32,815 nucleotides of DNA, from positions 1-32,815 of IMG/VR virus record IMGVR_UViG_3300046517_000749; one strand, written 5' to 3'. Both the position numbers and the translations under genes were made by a program. Source of the DNA: a virus. Of this stretch, positions 1,740-30,073 are shown piece after piece. Position 1 is the first letter of the stretch, and every line of letters starts with the position of its first letter. A model generated the notes under the pieces. That model was not told where the DNA came from. It made no database searches and was given only the letters and a program-made list of their open reading frames with translations.

Positions 1740-2006
1740 TCACGCGCTCTCCTCGTCCGACGTGACTTCCACGTCCCTTTCGCAGTCGGCACACCAGAAA
1801 ATCGGCGGGTGGATCGTGTTGCAGCACCCACCCTTGACCGGCATCGGCTCACCGCACCGTCCGCAGATGACCGTGATGTCCGCGTGGCCCTTCTCGCAGC
1901 GCAGCCCGGGCGCTTTCGCTGGCGACAGGATTTTCCGGATGCGAATACAGCGTGGACAGTCGTCGCGCGATGGGCCGAGGAAATGATTATGGTCGCCAGT
2001 ATTCAC
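1740..2006 (-). CDS. Double zinc-ribbon small protein
   Basis: 88 residues from a GTG at 2006, preceded by GGGGAGGG and sharing GTGA with the stop of the gene above. Metal-binding signatures are CPRC near residue 14, CEKGH and CGRCGEPMP in the middle, and CADC near the end, consistent with two treble-clef or ribbon motifs. No enzyme motif is seen. It is probably a DNA- or RNA-binding accessory protein of the early operon. Confidence 0.6.
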   Translation of the reverse strand: MNTGDHNHFLGPSRDDCPRCIRIRKILSPAKAPGLRCEKGHADITVICGRCGEPMPVKGGCCNTIHPPIFWCADCERDVEVTSDEESA

Positions 2007-2215
2007 GCCGCCCTCCCCTGCACCCGCGAGTAGGTATCCGCGCAGTCCCTGCACAGAACGTCCTCGACCGCGCAGACACGCAGATGGCGACTGTGCCAGA
2101 CGCGCAGCACGAGCGCCCGCTTGGCCGGTCCATCTATTCTGGCCGGATGCCAACTCGGCAGCTGACGGTCCAGATCCACGTCGCACGAACGACACCTGAC
2201 GCGCGGGCTATTCAT
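2003..2215 (-). CDS. Small CxxC protein
   Basis: 70 residues. The ATG at 2215 overlaps the stop of the upstream gene (ATGA) and its own stop overlaps the next start (GTGA). It contains CRSCD near residue 8 and CRDCAD near residue 56, a likely four-Cys zinc site. Function unknown. The coupling on both sides is the main support for a real gene. Confidence 0.55.
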   Translation of the reverse strand: MNSPRVRCRSCDVDLDRQLPSWHPARIDGPAKRALVLRVWHSRHLRVCAVEDVLCRDCADTYSRVQGRAA

Positions 2216-2415
2216 GCTGTCCTCCGCGAGAAAGTCCGCCCGGCGGCGCGGGTCCGATCGCGCTCCCCCGCCGCCTGGGCAGACACCGGATCGACGGCTC
2301 CGGCGGGCCGTTCGTCATCCCCGTCCATGGTCGCTTGGGAGACTACTCGCACGGCCAGCGGCTCATGGGTACGGAGCGCGCTGTACTTCAGGGGCGGACG
2401 GGGAAGATTGTCCAT
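2212..2415 (-). CDS. First gene of the left early operon, unknown function
   Basis: 67 residues from ATG 2415, beginning MDNLPRPPLKYSALR. No Shine-Dalgarno is visible. The ATG lies only about ten bases from the -10 box of the promoter at 2425-2453, so the message would have almost no leader. The C-terminus is rich in Arg, Ala and Asp and looks disordered. It is coupled by ATGA to the following Cys-rich gene. Product unknown. Confidence 0.5.
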   Translation of the reverse strand: MDNLPRPPLKYSALRTHEPLAVRVVSQATMDGDDERPAGAVDPVSAQAAGERDRTRAAGRTFSRRTA

Positions 2416-2424
2416 GACGTGAGA

Positions 2425-2453
2425 ATAGTACGGCGTCGCCGTCAGGGTGTCAA
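2425..2453 (-). promoter_or_regulatory. Early promoter PL1 with palindromic operator in spacer
   Basis: Read on the minus strand: TTGACA (2453-2448), a 17-base spacer, then TACTAT (2430-2425). The spacer ends with the perfect palindrome CGGCGACGCCG (2441-2431) directly against the -10 box. It points into the gene at 2415. The same palindrome sits in the same place in two other promoters nearby. Confidence 0.8.
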
Positions 2454-2462
2454 GCCTTATTT

Positions 2463-2594
2463 TCAGGCAGCCCGCGCGGACTTCTTCGCCTGGTGCCGCT
2501 TCCGTCTCCGCAGTCCCTTCCGGCTGGCTTCGTAACGGGCGTTTCTCTGCTTACCTTTTTCCGTAGCGTTGTATCGCTGATCTCTCGTGGGCAT
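2463..2594 (-). CDS. Small basic phage protein (43 aa), probably leaderless
   Basis: 43 residues from ATG 2594, MPTRDQRYNATEKGKQ onward, ending KRHQAKKSARAA. The repeated pattern of Y, S/T, K-G then Arg/Lys clusters resembles short basic proteins common in phages. These are of unknown function and often annotated as hypothetical. About 17 of 43 residues are Lys, Arg or His. The A of the ATG is seven bases from the perfect TATAAT at 2606-2601, so transcription should begin at the start codon itself. Nucleic-acid binding is an inference from charge only. Confidence 0.6.
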   Translation of the reverse strand: MPTRDQRYNATEKGKQRNARYEASRKGLRRRKRHQAKKSARAA

Positions 2595-2600
2595 GGGGGA

Positions 2601-2629
2601 ATTATACGGCGTCGCCATCCGCACCGCAA
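2601..2629 (-). promoter_or_regulatory. Early promoter PL2, perfect TATAAT, shared operator
   Basis: Minus strand: TTGCGG (2629-2624, a poor -35), a 17-base spacer, then TATAAT (2606-2601). The spacer ends in TGGCGACGCCG, a 10-of-11 copy of the palindrome in PL1 and PR. A weak -35 with a perfect -10 may mean activation or competition with the divergent promoter PR. Confidence 0.75.
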
Positions 2630-2633
2630 GATA

Positions 2634-2648
2634 AGTCTTGACAAGACT
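2634..2648. promoter_or_regulatory. 15-bp perfect palindrome over the PR -35 box
   Basis: AGTCTTG-A-CAAGACT has seven-base arms around one central base. It contains the TTGACA of the plus-strand promoter and lies just upstream of PL2. It is a good candidate for a second operator, distinct in sequence from the CGGCGWCGCCG palindrome. Confidence 0.65.
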
Positions 2649-2666
2649 CCGGCGTCGCCGTAATAT
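2638..2666 (+). promoter_or_regulatory. Promoter PR driving the first pentamer array
   Basis: TTGACA (2638-2643), 17-base spacer, TAATAT (2661-2666). The spacer ends with CGGCGTCGCCG (2650-2660) against the -10 box, exactly as in the two minus-strand promoters. The expected start point is near 2673, about four bases before the first GGCNN unit, so the transcript would begin with the array. Confidence 0.8.
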
Positions 2667-2676
2667 GCAATATCTA

Positions 2677-2804
2677 GGCAAGGCTGTGCAAGGCGAGGAT
2701 TGGCATGGCTCGGCAAGGCTCGGCGAGGTCTGGCGAGGAAAGGCATGGCTCGGCAGGAAGGGGCGAGGCGGTGCGGGGCTAGGCGTGCCGTGGCTTGGCA
2801 AGGG
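2677..2804 (+). repeat. Degenerate GGCNN pentanucleotide array 1
   Basis: Twenty-five consecutive pentamers keep a strict 5-bp register (2677, 2682, 2687 and so on to 2797), and the array closes with GGG at 2802. Eighteen units are exactly GGC plus two variable bases. The others differ mainly by one substitution (TGC, GGA, GGT, GCC), with GAAGG the most divergent. There is no insertion or deletion. It lies between promoter PR and the gene at 2839, on the same strand. It is not a CRISPR: the unit is five bases and there are no spacers. Confidence 0.9.
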
Positions 2805-2813
2805 ACATTTTAA

Positions 2814-2826
2814 GCGCGTTGAGCGC
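2814..2826 (+). promoter_or_regulatory. Short GC hairpin before the ribosome site of the 2839 gene
   Basis: GCGC-GTTGA-GCGC, directly followed by AGGGGAG (2827-2833) and the ATG at 2839. It could modulate access to the ribosome site or mark the end of the array part of the RNA. A four-bp stem is weak evidence. Confidence 0.35.
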
Positions 2827-2838
2827 AGGGGAGACTAG

Positions 2839-3411
2839 ATGATCGTTAAGGTGGAAATCCGCGGAATTACGTCACTCTTGATTCATCGATTCGGAGAACA
2901 AGCGGAACAGGCCGGGAAAACGAGGAGGATCGAAGTAAAGAACCGAGATCCGCGAGAGGAAGCGACGAAGGCGGCTTATATCAATGCCAAGGATGGGACA
3001 TTCTATTTTTCCGCCTTCGCCATCCCCAACGCGATGTCCGCTGCCGGCGCCAATCACAAGGCCACAGGAACGCGCAAAACACTGCGCTTCACGGTCCCCT
3101 CCGCGGTGAGGATGCTTACCGACGCTGTGACCATTCTTAATGGCGATGGACCGGCCAAGTCGTTCGAGGTGGATTCCCGTCCGGTGACTATTCCGGCCAC
3201 GAAGGGGCGAATCATGCGCCATCGTCCGCGCTTCGATGTATGGGGCGCGAGATTCGATCTTGAGATTGATTCCGATCTGCTCTCCTCCGAGATGGCCCAT
3301 CAATTACTGAATGAAGCCGGACAGTCCATCGGGATCGGAGATTTCCGCCCGGAGAAGCGTGGGCCGTTTGGGCGATTCAGAGTTGTCTCTTTCGAAGAAC
3401 AATCAAAATAA
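2839..3411 (+). CDS. RAMP-like phage protein encoded between two pentamer arrays
   Basis: 190 residues, ATG five bases after AGGGGAG. The N-terminus (KVEIRGITSLLIHRF) is a strand plus a G-x-x-x-L-L-I-H motif. The middle is beta-rich, and the C-terminus has HRPRFDVWGARFDLEID and then GIGDFRPEKRGPFGRFRV (about 163-180). That glycine-rich loop between two strands resembles the signature loop of RAMP-superfamily proteins (Cas5, Cas6, Cas7), but the assignment is my inference and not a recognised family match. The protein is paralogous to the one at 29510-30073, most clearly over the last 60 residues. Its codons look clearly lower in GC than the surrounding phage genes, suggesting separate acquisition. 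It is one of only two plus-strand genes here. It shares a likely transcript with array 1, and array 2 begins four bases after its stop codon. RNA binding is plausible; activity is unknown. Confidence 0.88.
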   Translation: MIVKVEIRGITSLLIHRFGEQAEQAGKTRRIEVKNRDPREEATKAAYINAKDGTFYFSAFAIPNAMSAAGANHKATGTRKTLRFTVPSAVRMLTDAVTILNGDGPAKSFEVDSRPVTIPATKGRIMRHRPRFDVWGARFDLEIDSDLLSSEMAHQLLNEAGQSIGIGDFRPEKRGPFGRFRVVSFEEQSK

Positions 3412-3414
3412 CAT

Positions 3415-3594
3415 GGCGTGGCTGTGTTGGGCGTGGCTTGGCGAGGATTGCCGAGGCGTAGCTTGGCGAGGCAGGGCCTGATCTGGCAATGCCTGGCGCG
3501 GCCGGGCGGGGCAGGGCATGGAATTGCGAGGTATGGCAAGGTTAGGCAAGGCGCGGACCGGCCGGGCTGGGCGAGGCTGGGCAGGGCAAGGGAA
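3415..3594 (+). repeat. Degenerate GGCNN pentanucleotide array 2
   Basis: Thirty-six pentamers in unbroken 5-bp register from 3415 to 3594, starting four bases after the TAA of the 2839 gene. Twenty-four units are exactly GGCNN. The others are near variants such as TGC, GGA, GGT, GCC or AGC. It shares the run GGCGAGGATTG with array 1 and, like array 1, ends with GGCAAGGGA. The far end abuts the A-tract of the late-operon terminator, so the array fills all the space between gene and terminator. Confidence 0.9.
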
Positions 3595-3625
3595 ACAAAA
3601 ACCTCCGGGTGGGAGTGCCCGGAGG
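3593..3625 (-). terminator. Strong intrinsic terminator of the late operon
   Basis: On the minus strand CCTCCGGG and CCCGGAGG (3625-3618 and 3609-3602) form an eight-bp perfect stem with an eight-base loop, followed by TTTTTGTTT (3601-3593). It lies 22 bases after the last late gene and separates that operon from array 2. On the plus strand the hairpin lacks a T-tract. Confidence 0.9.
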
Positions 3626-3646
3626 CTTCCGGTCGGAGGGTGGAGA

Positions 3647-3928
3647 CTACGGAGCTGGTGCGGGCGGCGGCGGATTCAGCACGGCATCCACCTTGGCCGT
3701 CTCGGCCTTGGCGGCATCCACCAGGGACTGAACGTCCGCCAGCGTCTGGGCCGAGGCGATGTTATTCAGGATGGCGTCGACCTTGCCGATGAGATCCGCC
3801 AGTGCCGCCTTCAGGTCCGCTACTTCACTGCTGAGGTCTGCCATGTTCGATTCCTCCGTGAGAGAGAGACTGATTAACAGTGCCTCGATCCGGCCAAGTC
3901 TCTCCCGGACCTCGAAGCGGAAAGACAT
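3647..3928 (-). CDS. Small coiled-coil protein at end of late operon, two possible starts
   Basis: 93 residues from ATG 3928 (TAAATG junction with the gene above). An internal ATG at 3844 gives 65 residues and has the better ribosome site, GGAGGA seven bases upstream. The shorter form is a heptad-like helix (MADLSSEVADLKAALADLIG and on) with a Pro/Ala tail, NPPPPAPAP. The long form adds an N-terminal helix with a hydrophobic face. Dual starts are known for phage holins, but no membrane segment is clear here. Function unknown; it may be a lysis or accessory protein. Confidence 0.6.
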   Translation of the reverse strand: MSFRFEVRERLGRIEALLISLSLTEESNMADLSSEVADLKAALADLIGKVDAILNNIASAQTLADVQSLVDAAKAETAKVDAVLNPPPPAPAP

Positions 3929-4129
3929 TTACTTGGGGACAACCACCGTTCCGTCGATCTTGTGCGAGATGCCAGCGAAGGACGGCAGGATGGCCCCCAG
4001 AGCCGCCTGGAGGGCCAGCACATAGGGATTCATCCCGAGAGCAGGGAAGACGCCCAGAGCGTTATTCAGGACCGTGGCCACCAGGGCCAGAACGTTGAGC
4101 CACTGAGCTCCATGCAGATACTGCCGCAT
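3929..4129 (-). CDS. Putative holin-like membrane protein
   Basis: 66 residues from ATG 4129, chosen for AGGAGGG seven bases upstream. The alternative GTG at 4186 shares GTGA with the previous stop but lacks such a site. It has two hydrophobic segments, WLNVLALVATVLNNALGVF and YVLALQAALGAILPSFAG, joined by a short turn, as in class II holins. It lies just downstream of the M23 endolysin and a membrane-anchored coiled-coil protein, which supports a role in membrane permeabilisation. The family is not recognised. Confidence 0.55.
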   Translation of the reverse strand: MRQYLHGAQWLNVLALVATVLNNALGVFPALGMNPYVLALQAALGAILPSFAGISHKIDGTVVVPK

Positions 4130-4182
4130 AAGCGGACCCTCCTTCTTGAATAGTCGGCGAACAAAAAGCAGTTGGCGGATGT

Positions 4183-4521
4183 TCACCGGGGGATCCGCCC
4201 TTCCTTCATCATGGCCTGAAAGTAAGTCTGCATCATCTCATTGGTCTGCTTCACCTGCTCGGTCAAGGCAGAGATATCACGAGAGTTCCGCTCGATATCC
4301 CACCCCTGCCGTTCGTTGACTGCGTGGCAGGCTTCCACCTTGGGAACGATCTCCTTGAGCGTCTCGTCATCGGAATTGAGCATCCGCTGGGCGGTCACGC
4401 TCTGTTCGATCTTGGCTTCCCACCCGAGATAATACGACCACAGGGCCGTCAGGATGAGGCAGCCGCTGGCGATGGCAGCAAGGGTACCCACGAGTTTCCC
4501 CTTGCCGTTGAGGCCGATCAT
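4183..4521 (-). CDS. Membrane-anchored coiled-coil protein, Rz-like (i-spanin) candidate
   Basis: 112 residues, ATGA overlap with the endolysin stop. A single N-terminal membrane segment (LVGTLAAIASGCLILTALW, about residues 10-29) is followed by a long periplasmic-type helical region (EAKIEQSVTAQRML, then ISALTEQVKQTNEMMQTY). This N-in/C-out anchor plus coiled coil is the layout of inner-membrane spanins. No overlapping lipoprotein o-spanin gene is visible, so another holin-related or anti-holin role remains possible. Confidence 0.5.
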   Translation of the reverse strand: MIGLNGKGKLVGTLAAIASGCLILTALWSYYLGWEAKIEQSVTAQRMLNSDDETLKEIVPKVEACHAVNERQGWDIERNSRDISALTEQVKQTNEMMQTYFQAMMKEGRIPR

Positions 4522-5483: not shown

Positions 5484-8263
5484 GGGCAGGTATCCCCCGA
5501 GGCGTCGCAGGCGCAGCCCTTGCCGTCCCCGTCGCCGTCGTACTGGTCCGGGTTCGGTGTCAGCGGGCAGTTGTCGATGATGTCCGGCACGCCGTCCTCG
5601 TCCGAGTCGGCGTTGCTCACCCCGTTCGCGATGTTCGGCGGGAAGGGCGTCACGGTCGCCCCGGTCGGGTCCCCGGCCGAATGCGTGAAGTCCAGCACCC
5701 CGGCCCACGCCGCCGAGATGCGCTCCCGGTTGAAGCGGAAGTAGCGGATGCCGACCGCCGACCCGTCGCTGGCCCCGGTGAGCGCCGGCGCGCCTGGCAG
5801 GTAGTTCCAGTCGTACTTCGCCCGGTCCCGGAAGCGCGGACTCCCCGCGATGCCAACCCGGTTGGTCGCGGAGGTCAGGTTCGTCGAGTCCCCGGCCGAT
5901 TCTGCGGCCACGGGCGAGTCGTTCTCGACGTAGTAACTCGCCGTGTCGGTCAGGTCCACGTCGGTTGAGCCGGAGACGAACGCCTGACCGCTCAGGTGCG
6001 TGAACAGCGAGTTCGTGACGCTGCCGGTCGCTGCGGACGTTGGTGTCCAGTCCACCCAGCGGATCCCCTGCGTCGCCGCCACGCCATTGCCGTCGCAGGT
6101 CAGGTGCGAGATGGGCTCCGAGCCGTTGAAGTTGCCGATCACCTGAGCACAATTGCGATTGCCACCCCCGCCAACGTGCATGAAGCCGATCACGTCGTCC
6201 GCGATGGTCACGGTCGGGCTGTCGGACATGTAGGTCGCATCGACGCGGGTATCGACGCCCGGCCCTGAGCAGCCGTTGCCGCCGCAACCCGTCCCTGTCA
6301 GCACCGCGTCGTCCTCGCCGACGAGGACGCTGCCCCTGATCGACCGCGCGTGCCGGACGATGTAGGTCCCCTTCGTGCTGTCCTGAGCGAGGCCGACGTT
6401 CCGCACGAAGTCGGAGAACAGGTTGCCGCCTTGGACGCCGATGCCTCCAATATTCGAGACGTAATTGTTCGTGACCCCGGCGCCCTTCCCGGCATAGCCG
6501 TTCCCCTGGTCGAGACGGATGCCGACGCCGCAGACGTTCACGATGTGGTTGTCGTGGATCGACAGGTTCGCAACGACATCCGATGGAGCGGTCGCTCCCG
6601 AGGACGACCGGATGCCATCGCCAGCCTTAGTTGACAGCGTCGCCCCGACCGTACAGATGTCGAACAGTTGATTGAAGGCGACCTCGCCACCCTTGGCGCA
6701 GTTGAATTCGAGGCCGCGGCACTCGAAGCCGTCCGAGGTCGTGCAGCCGCCATAGACGAGGTTGTGAATCACGCGCACGCCGGTCGCCGCGATCGTGCAC
6801 CCCGCGTTCTGGAAGTTCAGTCCATTGCCGCGGGTCCCGTAGAACGTCGAATCCTTGAGGGTGAAGTTGTCGGGCTTCGGAGTGGTCGAAGGGCCAGCCG
6901 CGACCGGCGAGAAGCAGCCCGCGGCATCCGTCGCATTCGGCCCGGCGTCGTGGCACGCCATCCCCTCCACTGTGTAGTCGTGGAAGGCGACGATGTTGAA
7001 GCCGGAGGCGCCGTTGTAATCGTGGAAGTTCACATCGACGAAGTTCGAGGCGACGGCGTTCTGGTTCGCGGTCGAGAACTGCACGCCGGAGTTGGCCCCG
7101 TCCGCGCTTCCCGCTCCCGCAATGTCCACCTGCTGAAGCGTCGGTGCTGTGTCGGCGTCAGAGGTGATGTAGTAGCCGTGTGTGCCGGCGGACTGGAGAA
7201 AGCGCACGTCGTCCATGATGCGCAGGCGGTCACTCACGGCCGGGAAGATCTGATAGGCGGTCCCGAGGCCCGTGCCCGTGCAGAAGGGGCGCGGCTGGTT
7301 GGCCGCCGTGCAGATGGCGTTCCCGGTCGGGTCCGGCGTCCAGTGCCGGGACTTCGTGGGCGCGGCGGTCGGAGTCGTGCTGTTCCCCGACGGGAACACT
7401 CCGGCCGTGACGTGCTCCGACAGGCGCGAGCCGCAAGAGTGAAGGACCCCGGCGGTACAGGCGATCCCCGTCGAGTCAGCCAGGTCGGTGCAGAAAGCGA
7501 TCTGGTTCGCGGCTAGCGCGTTCGTGATGCCGTTCACTGTGTCGCCGCCGACGCCCACGATCTCGAACTGCCGGACCGTCAGTTGGCCGTCGAGGAAGCG
7601 AATCCGCCGCCCGCGCTTGGCGATGGCCGCGCCGTTGTCCACCGTCAGGACATAGAGCATCGCCGCGGTCGAGCCGCACCACGTCGAGACGACGGGCGCG
7701 CCGAGTTGGCCGGAGACGGTCACGCTCGACGCGGCCCCGGTCGAGATCGCCGTGACCGTCGCGTCCCGGTAGTCCCCCTTGGCGACGAAGTTCGGCATGA
7801 TGAGCCGCGTCCCCGCGGTCGTGCCGCCGGTCGTGTCCACCTTGATGCGGGTCGAGGGCGAGATCCACACCTCCGACGTGGCTTGCCCGACGACCCCCAC
7901 GTTCGAGGAGTTCCCGACGATGGTGAAGTTGCGGAAGCCCTGCCCGTCGCGACCCGAGGCGGTATCCGAGAAGATGAGTCTTCCCGCGCTGGCGATGGCG
8001 AGCGGGGTCGTGGCCGAGCCCGACACGCCGACCGACAGGTTATCCGTCGTGACGATGACCGTGTCGGCGCCGAGGTTGACGGTGTAGGTGTTCCCGCTGC
8101 CGTCGTTATTATTCGGGTAGGTCCCGTTGCACGAGCTCCAGTTGTTGAGGTCCTCCCAGATCACCGGCGTCGCCGAGGCCCACGGCACGCAGGCGTACTG
8201 CGTCGCCTTCGCGAGCGATGGGGTGCAGAGAAGAGCGGCCAGCAGGACGAGCGCGCGCCTCAT
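5480..8263 (-). CDS. Secreted-type beta-helix protein with thrombospondin type 3-like C-terminus, candidate tail spike
   Basis: 927 residues from ATG 8263 (ATGA with the gene above). Residues 1-20 (MRRALVLLAALLCTPSLAKA) form a typical Sec signal peptide. The long middle is full of short Asn/Gly/Val repeats typical of a right-handed parallel beta-helix (for example LSIHDNHIVNVCGVGIRLDQ), as in polysaccharide-degrading tail spikes. The last 40 residues contain DSDEDGVPDIIDNC and DQYDGDGDGKGCACD, the Ca-binding pattern of thrombospondin type 3 repeats, usual in cell-surface proteins. I infer host-surface binding or glycan cleavage. The signal peptide is odd for a virion protein and suggests capture of a bacterial gene or a secreted product. 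Confidence 0.72.
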   Translation of the reverse strand: MRRALVLLAALLCTPSLAKATQYACVPWASATPVIWEDLNNWSSCNGTYPNNNDGSGNTYTVNLGADTVIVTTDNLSVGVSGSATTPLAIASAGRLIFSDTASGRDGQGFRNFTIVGNSSNVGVVGQATSEVWISPSTRIKVDTTGGTTAGTRLIMPNFVAKGDYRDATVTAISTGAASSVTVSGQLGAPVVSTWCGSTAAMLYVLTVDNGAAIAKRGRRIRFLDGQLTVRQFEIVGVGGDTVNGITNALAANQIAFCTDLADSTGIACTAGVLHSCGSRLSEHVTAGVFPSGNSTTPTAAPTKSRHWTPDPTGNAICTAANQPRPFCTGTGLGTAYQIFPAVSDRLRIMDDVRFLQSAGTHGYYITSDADTAPTLQQVDIAGAGSADGANSGVQFSTANQNAVASNFVDVNFHDYNGASGFNIVAFHDYTVEGMACHDAGPNATDAAGCFSPVAAGPSTTPKPDNFTLKDSTFYGTRGNGLNFQNAGCTIAATGVRVIHNLVYGGCTTSDGFECRGLEFNCAKGGEVAFNQLFDICTVGATLSTKAGDGIRSSSGATAPSDVVANLSIHDNHIVNVCGVGIRLDQGNGYAGKGAGVTNNYVSNIGGIGVQGGNLFSDFVRNVGLAQDSTKGTYIVRHARSIRGSVLVGEDDAVLTGTGCGGNGCSGPGVDTRVDATYMSDSPTVTIADDVIGFMHVGGGGNRNCAQVIGNFNGSEPISHLTCDGNGVAATQGIRWVDWTPTSAATGSVTNSLFTHLSGQAFVSGSTDVDLTDTASYYVENDSPVAAESAGDSTNLTSATNRVGIAGSPRFRDRAKYDWNYLPGAPALTGASDGSAVGIRYFRFNRERISAAWAGVLDFTHSAGDPTGATVTPFPPNIANGVSNADSDEDGVPDIIDNCPLTPNPDQYDGDGDGKGCACDASGDTCP

Positions 8264-29509: not shown

Positions 29510-30073
29510 CTAGACTTCCTTCCATTCCGTCACGACGAACTTTCCCATCGGCCCCTGGTTCTGGACGCGCCACGCGCCCAGTCCCACATACTGGCCGGCG
29601 TTGTCCACAAGGCCGCGGACCTGTTCCTCCCCGAGGTGCTCCTCGTTGTAGGTCAGGCTGCCGCTGATCTGCCACTCGTCGAAGCGGGGTCGATACAGCA
29701 TCGTCCCGCCGCCTCCGAACCCTCCCTTGGCTCCGGCGCGGCGTGCGTCGAGCGTCCAGTTCTGCGGCTCGATCGGAAGGTGCATGTCGTCCACCGAGAT
29801 CGTTCGGATGAGCGACTTCCAACCCTTCCGGCGCCCCGGGCTCGGCATGTACGGGTACGCCGCCTGGATCGACTTCTGGACGTTGATTCCCGGCACGACG
29901 CAGGTCTCCTTGCCGGAAATCTTCACCTTGTGCAGGTGCGACTCGGCCTGTTCCTGCGCGGTCGGCTTGGCCTTCGTGACCTTGTTGCCGTTCCCATTCG
30001 TCTCCTCGTACGGCTGCTCGGCGGACAACATCAGAGGGCGCGTTCCCTTCAGCGTGAATCTGATCGTCTTCAC
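29510..30073 (-). CDS. RAMP-like protein, paralogue of the array-flanked 2839 gene
   Basis: 187 residues from a GTG at 30073, four bases after GGAGGTG. The N-terminus KTIRFTLKGTRPLMLSAEQ matches the strand and G-x-x-x-L-L motif of the 2839 protein. The C-terminus YRPRFDEWQISGSLTYNEEH then LVDNAGQYVGLGAWRVQNQ and GPMGKFVVTEW aligns with it without gaps over 60 residues, including the glycine-rich loop. A Gly-rich segment (KGGFGGGGTM) precedes this. No pentamer array flanks it. It is presumably the phage's resident copy, inferred to be an RNA-binding or nucleic-acid-binding beta-sheet protein. Confidence 0.75.
   Translation of the reverse strand: MKTIRFTLKGTRPLMLSAEQPYEETNGNGNKVTKAKPTAQEQAESHLHKVKISGKETCVVPGINVQKSIQAAYPYMPSPGRRKGWKSLIRTISVDDMHLPIEPQNWTLDARRAGAKGGFGGGGTMLYRPRFDEWQISGSLTYNEEHLGEEQVRGLVDNAGQYVGLGAWRVQNQGPMGKFVVTEWKEV

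What the first reader, a model, noticed from the sequence alone, without database searches (positions are those of the whole stretch)
2425..2666. Three promoters share one palindrome at the same place
PL1 (2453-2425), PL2 (2629-2601) and PR (2638-2666) all have a 17-base spacer that ends with CGGCGWCGCCG (one copy 10 of 11) directly against the -10 box. Two point to the early operon and one into the array cassette. The identical geometry argues for one regulator acting on all three, so the array cassette is under early phage control and not a random insertion. No gene for an obvious repressor is in the window.
Basis: seen in the sequence. Interest (0 to 1): 0.7.

Follow-up and report, generated by a model that had tools for sequence, protein, structure and literature searches.

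The report
Shared operator on VIPR phage promoters
Three promoters in a phage carry the same short palindrome wedged against the -10 box, most likely one repressor-binding site that couples the phage's leftward early genes to a newly described RNA-guided anti-phage cassette (VIPR); the promoter design is of a known type, and it is the link to VIPR that is new.

Summary
PL1, PL2 and PR have 17-bp spacers ending in CGGCGWCGCCG (PL2 one mismatch) directly against the -10 box. Nine of the 11 palindrome columns are identical in all three; none of 3 million random triples matched that. A close relative (G001; 84-96% identical over the shared early region) keeps all three sites, and they are its only CGGCGWCGCC words. 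Among viral contigs scanned, only that relative has more than one such site. The likely function is an operator for one dimeric repressor acting on all three promoters. Phage BPs, with a 12-bp palindrome between -10 and -35 of a divergent early promoter, is a close precedent. The 'array cassette' is a VIPR system: a RAMP-fold Vipr protein flanked by GGY/NN guide-RNA arrays. PR starts at the first array, so guide RNA and Vipr would be co-regulated with the leftward operon. Other VIPR loci lack the palindromic promoter, so it belongs to this phage, not to VIPR; the VIPR guides do not match the operators. No repressor gene was found; the record lacks about 2.6 kb present in G001. PL2 would give a leaderless mRNA for a 43-aa basic protein, an untested candidate regulator. 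Binding and transcription starts are inferred.

The parts
2425..2453 (-). PL1 promoter: TTGACA - 17 - TACTAT
   Evidence: conserved in G001 as TTGACATTCTGACGGCGACGCCGTATTAT
2431..2441 (.). Operator copy 1, CGGCGTCGCCG (13-bp perfect palindrome ACGGCGWCGCCGT)
   Evidence: unchanged in G001 although 3 other bases of PL1 changed
2601..2629 (-). PL2 promoter: TTGCGG (weak) - 17 - TATAAT
   Evidence: identical in G001
2607..2617 (.). Operator copy 2, 10 of 11 matches
2638..2666 (+). PR promoter: TTGACA - 17 - TAATAT, back to back with PL2 (8 bp between the -35 boxes)
   Evidence: identical in G001
2650..2660 (.). Operator copy 3, CGGCGTCGCCG; centre 43 bp (4.1 turns) from copy 2
2463..2594 (-). Gene after PL2: 43-aa very basic protein MPTRDQRYNATEKGKQRNARYEASRKGLRRRKRHQAKKSARAA; ATG where transcription should start (leaderless)
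   Evidence: 4 synonymous and 2 non-synonymous codon changes against G001; helical in the AlphaFold model
2212..2415 (-). Gene after PL1: 67-aa protein, start 10 nt past the -10 box (nearly leaderless)
   Evidence: 6 of 8 substitutions at third codon positions
2674..2806 (+). 5' GGY/NN array (VIPR guide-RNA type), about 25 in-register pentamers, starting at the expected PR start site
   Evidence: one difference from G001, at a Y position
2839..3411 (+). vipr gene, 190 aa, RAMP fold
   Evidence: phrog_4652; PDB 36pp_D SUSP1 Vipr E=1.6e-16; Csm RAMP folds by Foldseek; 21 synonymous, 0 non-synonymous changes against G001
3415..3591 (+). 3' GGY/NN array, about 35 pentamers
3596..3631 (-). Inverted repeat after the 3' array; scored as a terminator on the minus strand (14 pairs, then a T-run)

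Best explanation
CGGCGWCGCCG is the operator of one dimeric repressor. Bound in the spacer against the -10 box, the repressor would keep sigma-70 RNA polymerase off PL1, PL2 and PR, so the leftward operon and the rightward VIPR cassette switch on and off together. SHOWN from sequence: the three sites, their geometry, conservation in G001, and that a PR transcript would begin at the VIPR guide array and run into vipr. INFERRED: that the boxes are active promoters, that a protein binds, that it represses, and that one protein serves all three. WHO BINDS is open: the 43-aa basic protein made first from PL2 (autoregulation), a protein encoded outside the record, or a host regulator.
For: Nine of 11 palindrome columns are identical in three spacers whose other six bases are unrelated, with none of 3 million random triples as similar. 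A palindrome is the usual signature of a dimeric DNA-binding protein (general knowledge). All three sites are kept in G001 and are its only CGGCGWCGCC words. The 78 bp with PL2 and PR are 100% identical, while neighbouring genes are 92-96% identical; in PL1 the changes fall outside the palindrome. A relaxed promoter-plus-palindrome pattern hits 30 contig stretches; only G001 has more than one site, and it has three. Full -35 boxes at PL1 and PR with 17-bp spacing need no activator. Precedent: in phage BPs the operator lies between -10 and -35 of PR, divergent from Prep (PMC4557955).
Against: No repressor gene identified: no HTH_3 domain in the window, and the Pfam/PHROGs scans of early genes gave no confident regulator. 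Only one relative carries the region, and it is close, so conservation partly reflects common descent. Promoter calls rest on consensus only; PL2 has a weak -35. No binding or start-site data.
Confidence: 0.7

Rival explanations
1. The site is bound by a host transcription factor, so the phage reads the host's state through a host operator.
For: No phage repressor found; a compact GC-rich palindrome could be a host operator.
Against: Among 84,980 species genomes only six stretches have TTGAC-N7-CGGCGWCGCCG-TANNNT, in unrelated phyla, each single, about what chance gives. The host is unknown and host sites may be degenerate or spaced differently.
Confidence: 0.15
2. The VIPR complex itself binds these sites and autoregulates.
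For: The cassette encodes an RNA-guided DNA-binding repressor (PMC13142463) and lies beside the sites.
Against: Decoded NN guides from both arrays give no match in the window above shuffled guides under the 1-nt skip rule, and none of the best ones lies at the promoters. The 11-bp palindrome is much shorter than a 9-16 repeat target.
Confidence: 0.03
3. The palindrome acts as a DNA hairpin or is part of the promoter itself, as in the hairpin early promoters of phage N4.
For: CGGC-GWC-GCCG could fold as a 4-bp stem with a 3-nt loop; N4 has three early promoters with GC-rich hairpins (general knowledge).
Against: Ordinary sigma-70 boxes at 17 bp are present. N4-type promoters need a giant virion RNA polymerase; the longest listed ORF is 971 aa, in the structural region.
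Confidence: 0.04
4. The shared sequence is the trace of a duplicated promoter, or chance, without a regulator.
For: The genome is GC-rich and two further exact copies lie in structural genes.
Against: Bases between -35 and the palindrome and those after the -10 are unrelated among the three; chance is remote; in G001 the sites are the only copies.
Confidence: 0.08

Closest known systems
Mycobacteriophage BPs PR/Prep control by repressor gp33 (PMC4557955)
   Same: Divergent promoters; a palindromic operator (12 bp, CGACATATGTCG) between -10 and -35 of the early promoter; copies at further promoters.
   Different: Different sequence; BPs full sites have two half-sites; the gp33 repressor gene is adjacent, whereas no repressor gene is recognised here; BPs is temperate, lifestyle here unknown.
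Lambda OR/OL with CI and Cro
   Same: Operators overlap early promoters; the cI message from PRM is leaderless (general knowledge), like the 43-aa gene here.
   Different: Tripartite 17-bp operators; here a single 11-13 bp site per promoter and no CI or Cro homologue recognised.
VIPR systems (PMC13142463, 2026 preprint)
   Same: RAMP-fold Vipr protein with sense-strand GGY/NN arrays on both sides of the gene, in a phage.
   Different: Arrays of about 25 and 35 pentamers against 9-16 repeats per vrRNA, so probably several or staggered guides; no vap gene recognised beside it; own divergent promoter with a phage operator, which the main text of the paper does not describe.

Membership tests
Phage repressor-operator system of the BPs/lambda type | Palindromic site overlapping the RNA polymerase site of early promoters | tested here: met
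   (promoters by consensus only)
Phage repressor-operator system of the BPs/lambda type | Site repeated at more than one phage promoter and conserved in a relative | tested here: met
Phage repressor-operator system of the BPs/lambda type | Phage-encoded DNA-binding repressor gene | tested here: inconclusive
   No HTH_3 in the window; record lacks about 2.6 kb relative to G001; none recognised in the G001 genes of that segment that were scanned
Phage repressor-operator system of the BPs/lambda type | Repressor binds and shuts the promoters | not testable with these tools
   needs EMSA or reporter assays
VIPR | Vipr protein homology and RAMP fold | tested here: met
   (36pp_D)
VIPR | GGY/NN pentamer arrays flanking the gene, sense strand | tested here: met
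VIPR | Accessory vap gene | tested here: inconclusive
   No other gene between PR and the 3' array; vap1-6 sequences not available here
VIPR | vrRNA made and targets DNA by the 1-nt skip rule | tested here: inconclusive
   No target in the window or in 1.8 Mb of fetched loci above background; whole collections not searched; transcription not testable
N4-type hairpin promoters | Giant virion RNA polymerase | tested here: not met
   longest listed ORF in the (incomplete) record 971 aa, in the structural region

The most novel reading that the evidence does not exclude
A phage couples an RNA-guided anti-competitor weapon (VIPR) to its early transcription switch through one shared operator, and the regulator is the 43-aa leaderless basic protein made first from PL2, a small DNA-binding protein without a recognised family.
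Probability: 0.15. Interest if true: 0.7.

Novelty: new member of a known kind. Interest (0 to 1): 0.45.

Why it matters
VIPR was described only in 2026, and the main text of that paper does not discuss how phages time its expression. This locus makes that question testable: the operator, its three promoters and the two transcription units are defined to the base, so one reporter experiment can ask whether VIPR is deployed with the early genes and shut off with them. The operator design itself is of a known type.

Tried and rejected
VIPR guides aimed at the operators: no match above shuffled guides. Palindrome as a general VIPR element: absent from the promoter region of the vipr relatives inspected; only 2 of 12 whole records tested hold the 11-mer, once each. 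Host regulon: only chance-level hits. Widening the set of relatives: queries with the 184-aa early protein, the 67-aa and the 43-aa proteins returned only G001; terminase gave G002 and G003, which share structural genes but not this region. Family searches for the 43-aa protein: nothing in Pfam, PHROGs, PADLOC or phage records, and no credible PDB match. No known RNA family at gathering threshold.

Full report
OBSERVATION. The three promoter-like sites are present exactly as described. Their spacers are all 17 nt and end in the palindrome against the -10 box: CCCTGA|CGGCGACGCCG (PL1), TGCGGA|TGGCGACGCCG (PL2), AGACTC|CGGCGTCGCCG (PR). The six bases before the palindrome are unrelated. Nine of the 11 palindrome columns are identical in all three, the other two being the central W and the first base of PL2. 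In 3 million random triples of 17-mers from the same DNA no 11-nt block had nine identical columns (post hoc, so an order of magnitude only). PL1 and PR are the only two sites that pass the consensus scan in 1800-4200. PL2 has a perfect TATAAT but only 3 of 6 at -35. The exact 11-mer also occurs at 8165 and 9338 in structural genes without promoter boxes, which I take for background in a GC-rich genome.

CONSERVATION. The window is a whole IMG/VR record of 32,815 bases. The nearest relative found, IMGVR_UViG_3300047471_000919 (G001, 21.7 kb), shares the early region but has an unrelated structural module. It keeps all three sites, and they are its only CGGCGWCGCC words. From 2595 to 2672, spanning PL2 and PR, the two phages are identical over 78 bp, whereas the 43-aa gene is 92% and the PL1 gene and vipr 96% identical. 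The three changes in the PL1 promoter region lie in the -10 box and in the non-palindromic part of the spacer. A relaxed promoter-plus-palindrome pattern hits 30 contig stretches in the viral collection: G001 has three sites, the other 29 have one each. The site set is thus real but confined, as far as can be seen, to this pair of phages. Terminase relatives G002 and G003 share structural genes at 64-74% nucleotide identity but not this region, so they neither support nor refute.

WHAT THE PROMOTERS DRIVE. PL2: the ATG of a 43-aa, strongly basic protein lies 7 nt past the -10 box, where transcription should start, so the message would be leaderless. PL1: the ATG of a 67-aa protein lies 10 nt past the -10 box, leaving no room for a ribosome-binding site. 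Codon changes against G001 are mostly synonymous, so both genes look real. PR: the expected start at about 2672 coincides with the beginning of a 5'-UTR made almost wholly of GGC-NN pentamers, followed by the 190-aa gene 2839-3411, a second pentamer array, and an inverted repeat. In the window this cassette is read rightward, against the direction of the recognised phage genes.

THE CASSETTE IS VIPR. The 190-aa protein belongs to phrog_4652. A profile of 30 relatives matches PDB 36pp_D, 'SUSP1 Vipr protein', at E=1.6e-16. An AlphaFold model (mean pLDDT 85) matches Csm RAMP subunits of type III CRISPR complexes with Foldseek E down to 3e-6. In nearly all of the 40 relatives examined the gene is flanked upstream, downstream or on both sides by a GGY/NN array on its sense strand. 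These are the components described for Viral Interference Programmable Repeat systems (PMC13142463): a RAMP-like protein and vrRNAs of alternating GGY/NN motifs that read DNA with a one-nucleotide skip and repress competing phages. The only difference between the 5' arrays of the window and G001 is C/T at the Y of one GGY, which the VIPR code predicts to be neutral. Vipr itself has 21 synonymous and no non-synonymous changes. The main text of that paper has no mention of a repressor, palindrome or autoregulation.

IS THE PALINDROME PART OF VIPR? No. The vipr relatives inspected lack a palindromic promoter; in most the array follows directly on an upstream gene. Of 12 whole records tested only two hold the 11-mer, once each. 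Nor do the VIPR guides point at the operators: decoded dinucleotides of both arrays give no match in the window above shuffled guides, and nothing convincing in 1.8 Mb of fetched loci.

MECHANISM. The most economical reading is a repressor operator in the spacer, as in phage BPs, where a 12-bp palindrome lies between -10 and -35 of the early promoter PR, divergent from Prep, with further copies at other promoters (PMC4557955). Repression is preferred over activation because PL1 and PR have full -35 boxes at optimal spacing. The PL2 and PR operators are 43 bp apart, 4.1 helical turns, so on the same face; whether dimers interact across that distance is speculation. The binder is unknown. No HTH_3 domain is in the window. 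The record lacks about 2.6 kb that G001 has between its positions 4335 and 6920; the G001 genes of that segment that I scanned gave no recognised repressor. G001 does encode an Xre-type HTH fused to sigma-70 region 4, but in its own module, which the window does not share, so it is not the common regulator unless the window's phage has a homologue outside the record. The 43-aa basic protein is an attractive autoregulator by position, but its fold is predicted from two sequences only and nothing in the databases resembles it.

VERDICT. Observation confirmed; the interpretation of one regulator is well supported but unproven; the cassette is a VIPR system and its PR promoter carries the same operator as the leftward promoters. 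The operator type is known; the coupling to VIPR appears new. Steps shown: sequence, geometry, conservation, identity of the cassette. Steps inferred: promoter activity, binding, repression, timing, identity of the regulator.

Noticed in passing
window 2673-3599: The array cassette is a VIPR system: Vipr RAMP protein with GGY/NN arrays on both sides. Near-universal pairing of array and gene in the viral-contig relatives examined.
   Followed up: yes
window 29510-30073 (-): A second, divergent Vipr homologue (22% identity to the first; phrog_4652; 36pp_D E=1e-6) without any array, in the leftward genes.
   Followed up: partly
window 3412-3599 against G001: The first part of the 3' array differs in its NN dinucleotides between the two phages while the second part is nearly the same: guide turnover in close relatives.
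   Followed up: partly
window 2463-2594 and 2212-2415 (-): Both leftward promoters would give leaderless or nearly leaderless mRNAs.
   Followed up: partly
L170:2700-3320 (G001): Protein with an N-terminal Xre-type HTH and a C-terminal sigma-70 region 4, lying among sugar-nucleotide genes of a phage contig.
   Followed up: partly
window 1 and 32815: Alignment to G001 suggests the window's two ends are neighbours in a permuted genome with about 2.6 kb missing between them.
   Followed up: partly
L058:4839-5522 (G001): Protein with a weak DUF7666-like match near its N-terminus and a long AAWDARDAA-type repeat tail in the segment missing from the window.
   Followed up: no
window 29287 (-): Promoter-like TTGACA-17-TATACC without the palindrome, a possible promoter for the terminase and structural genes.
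   Followed up: no
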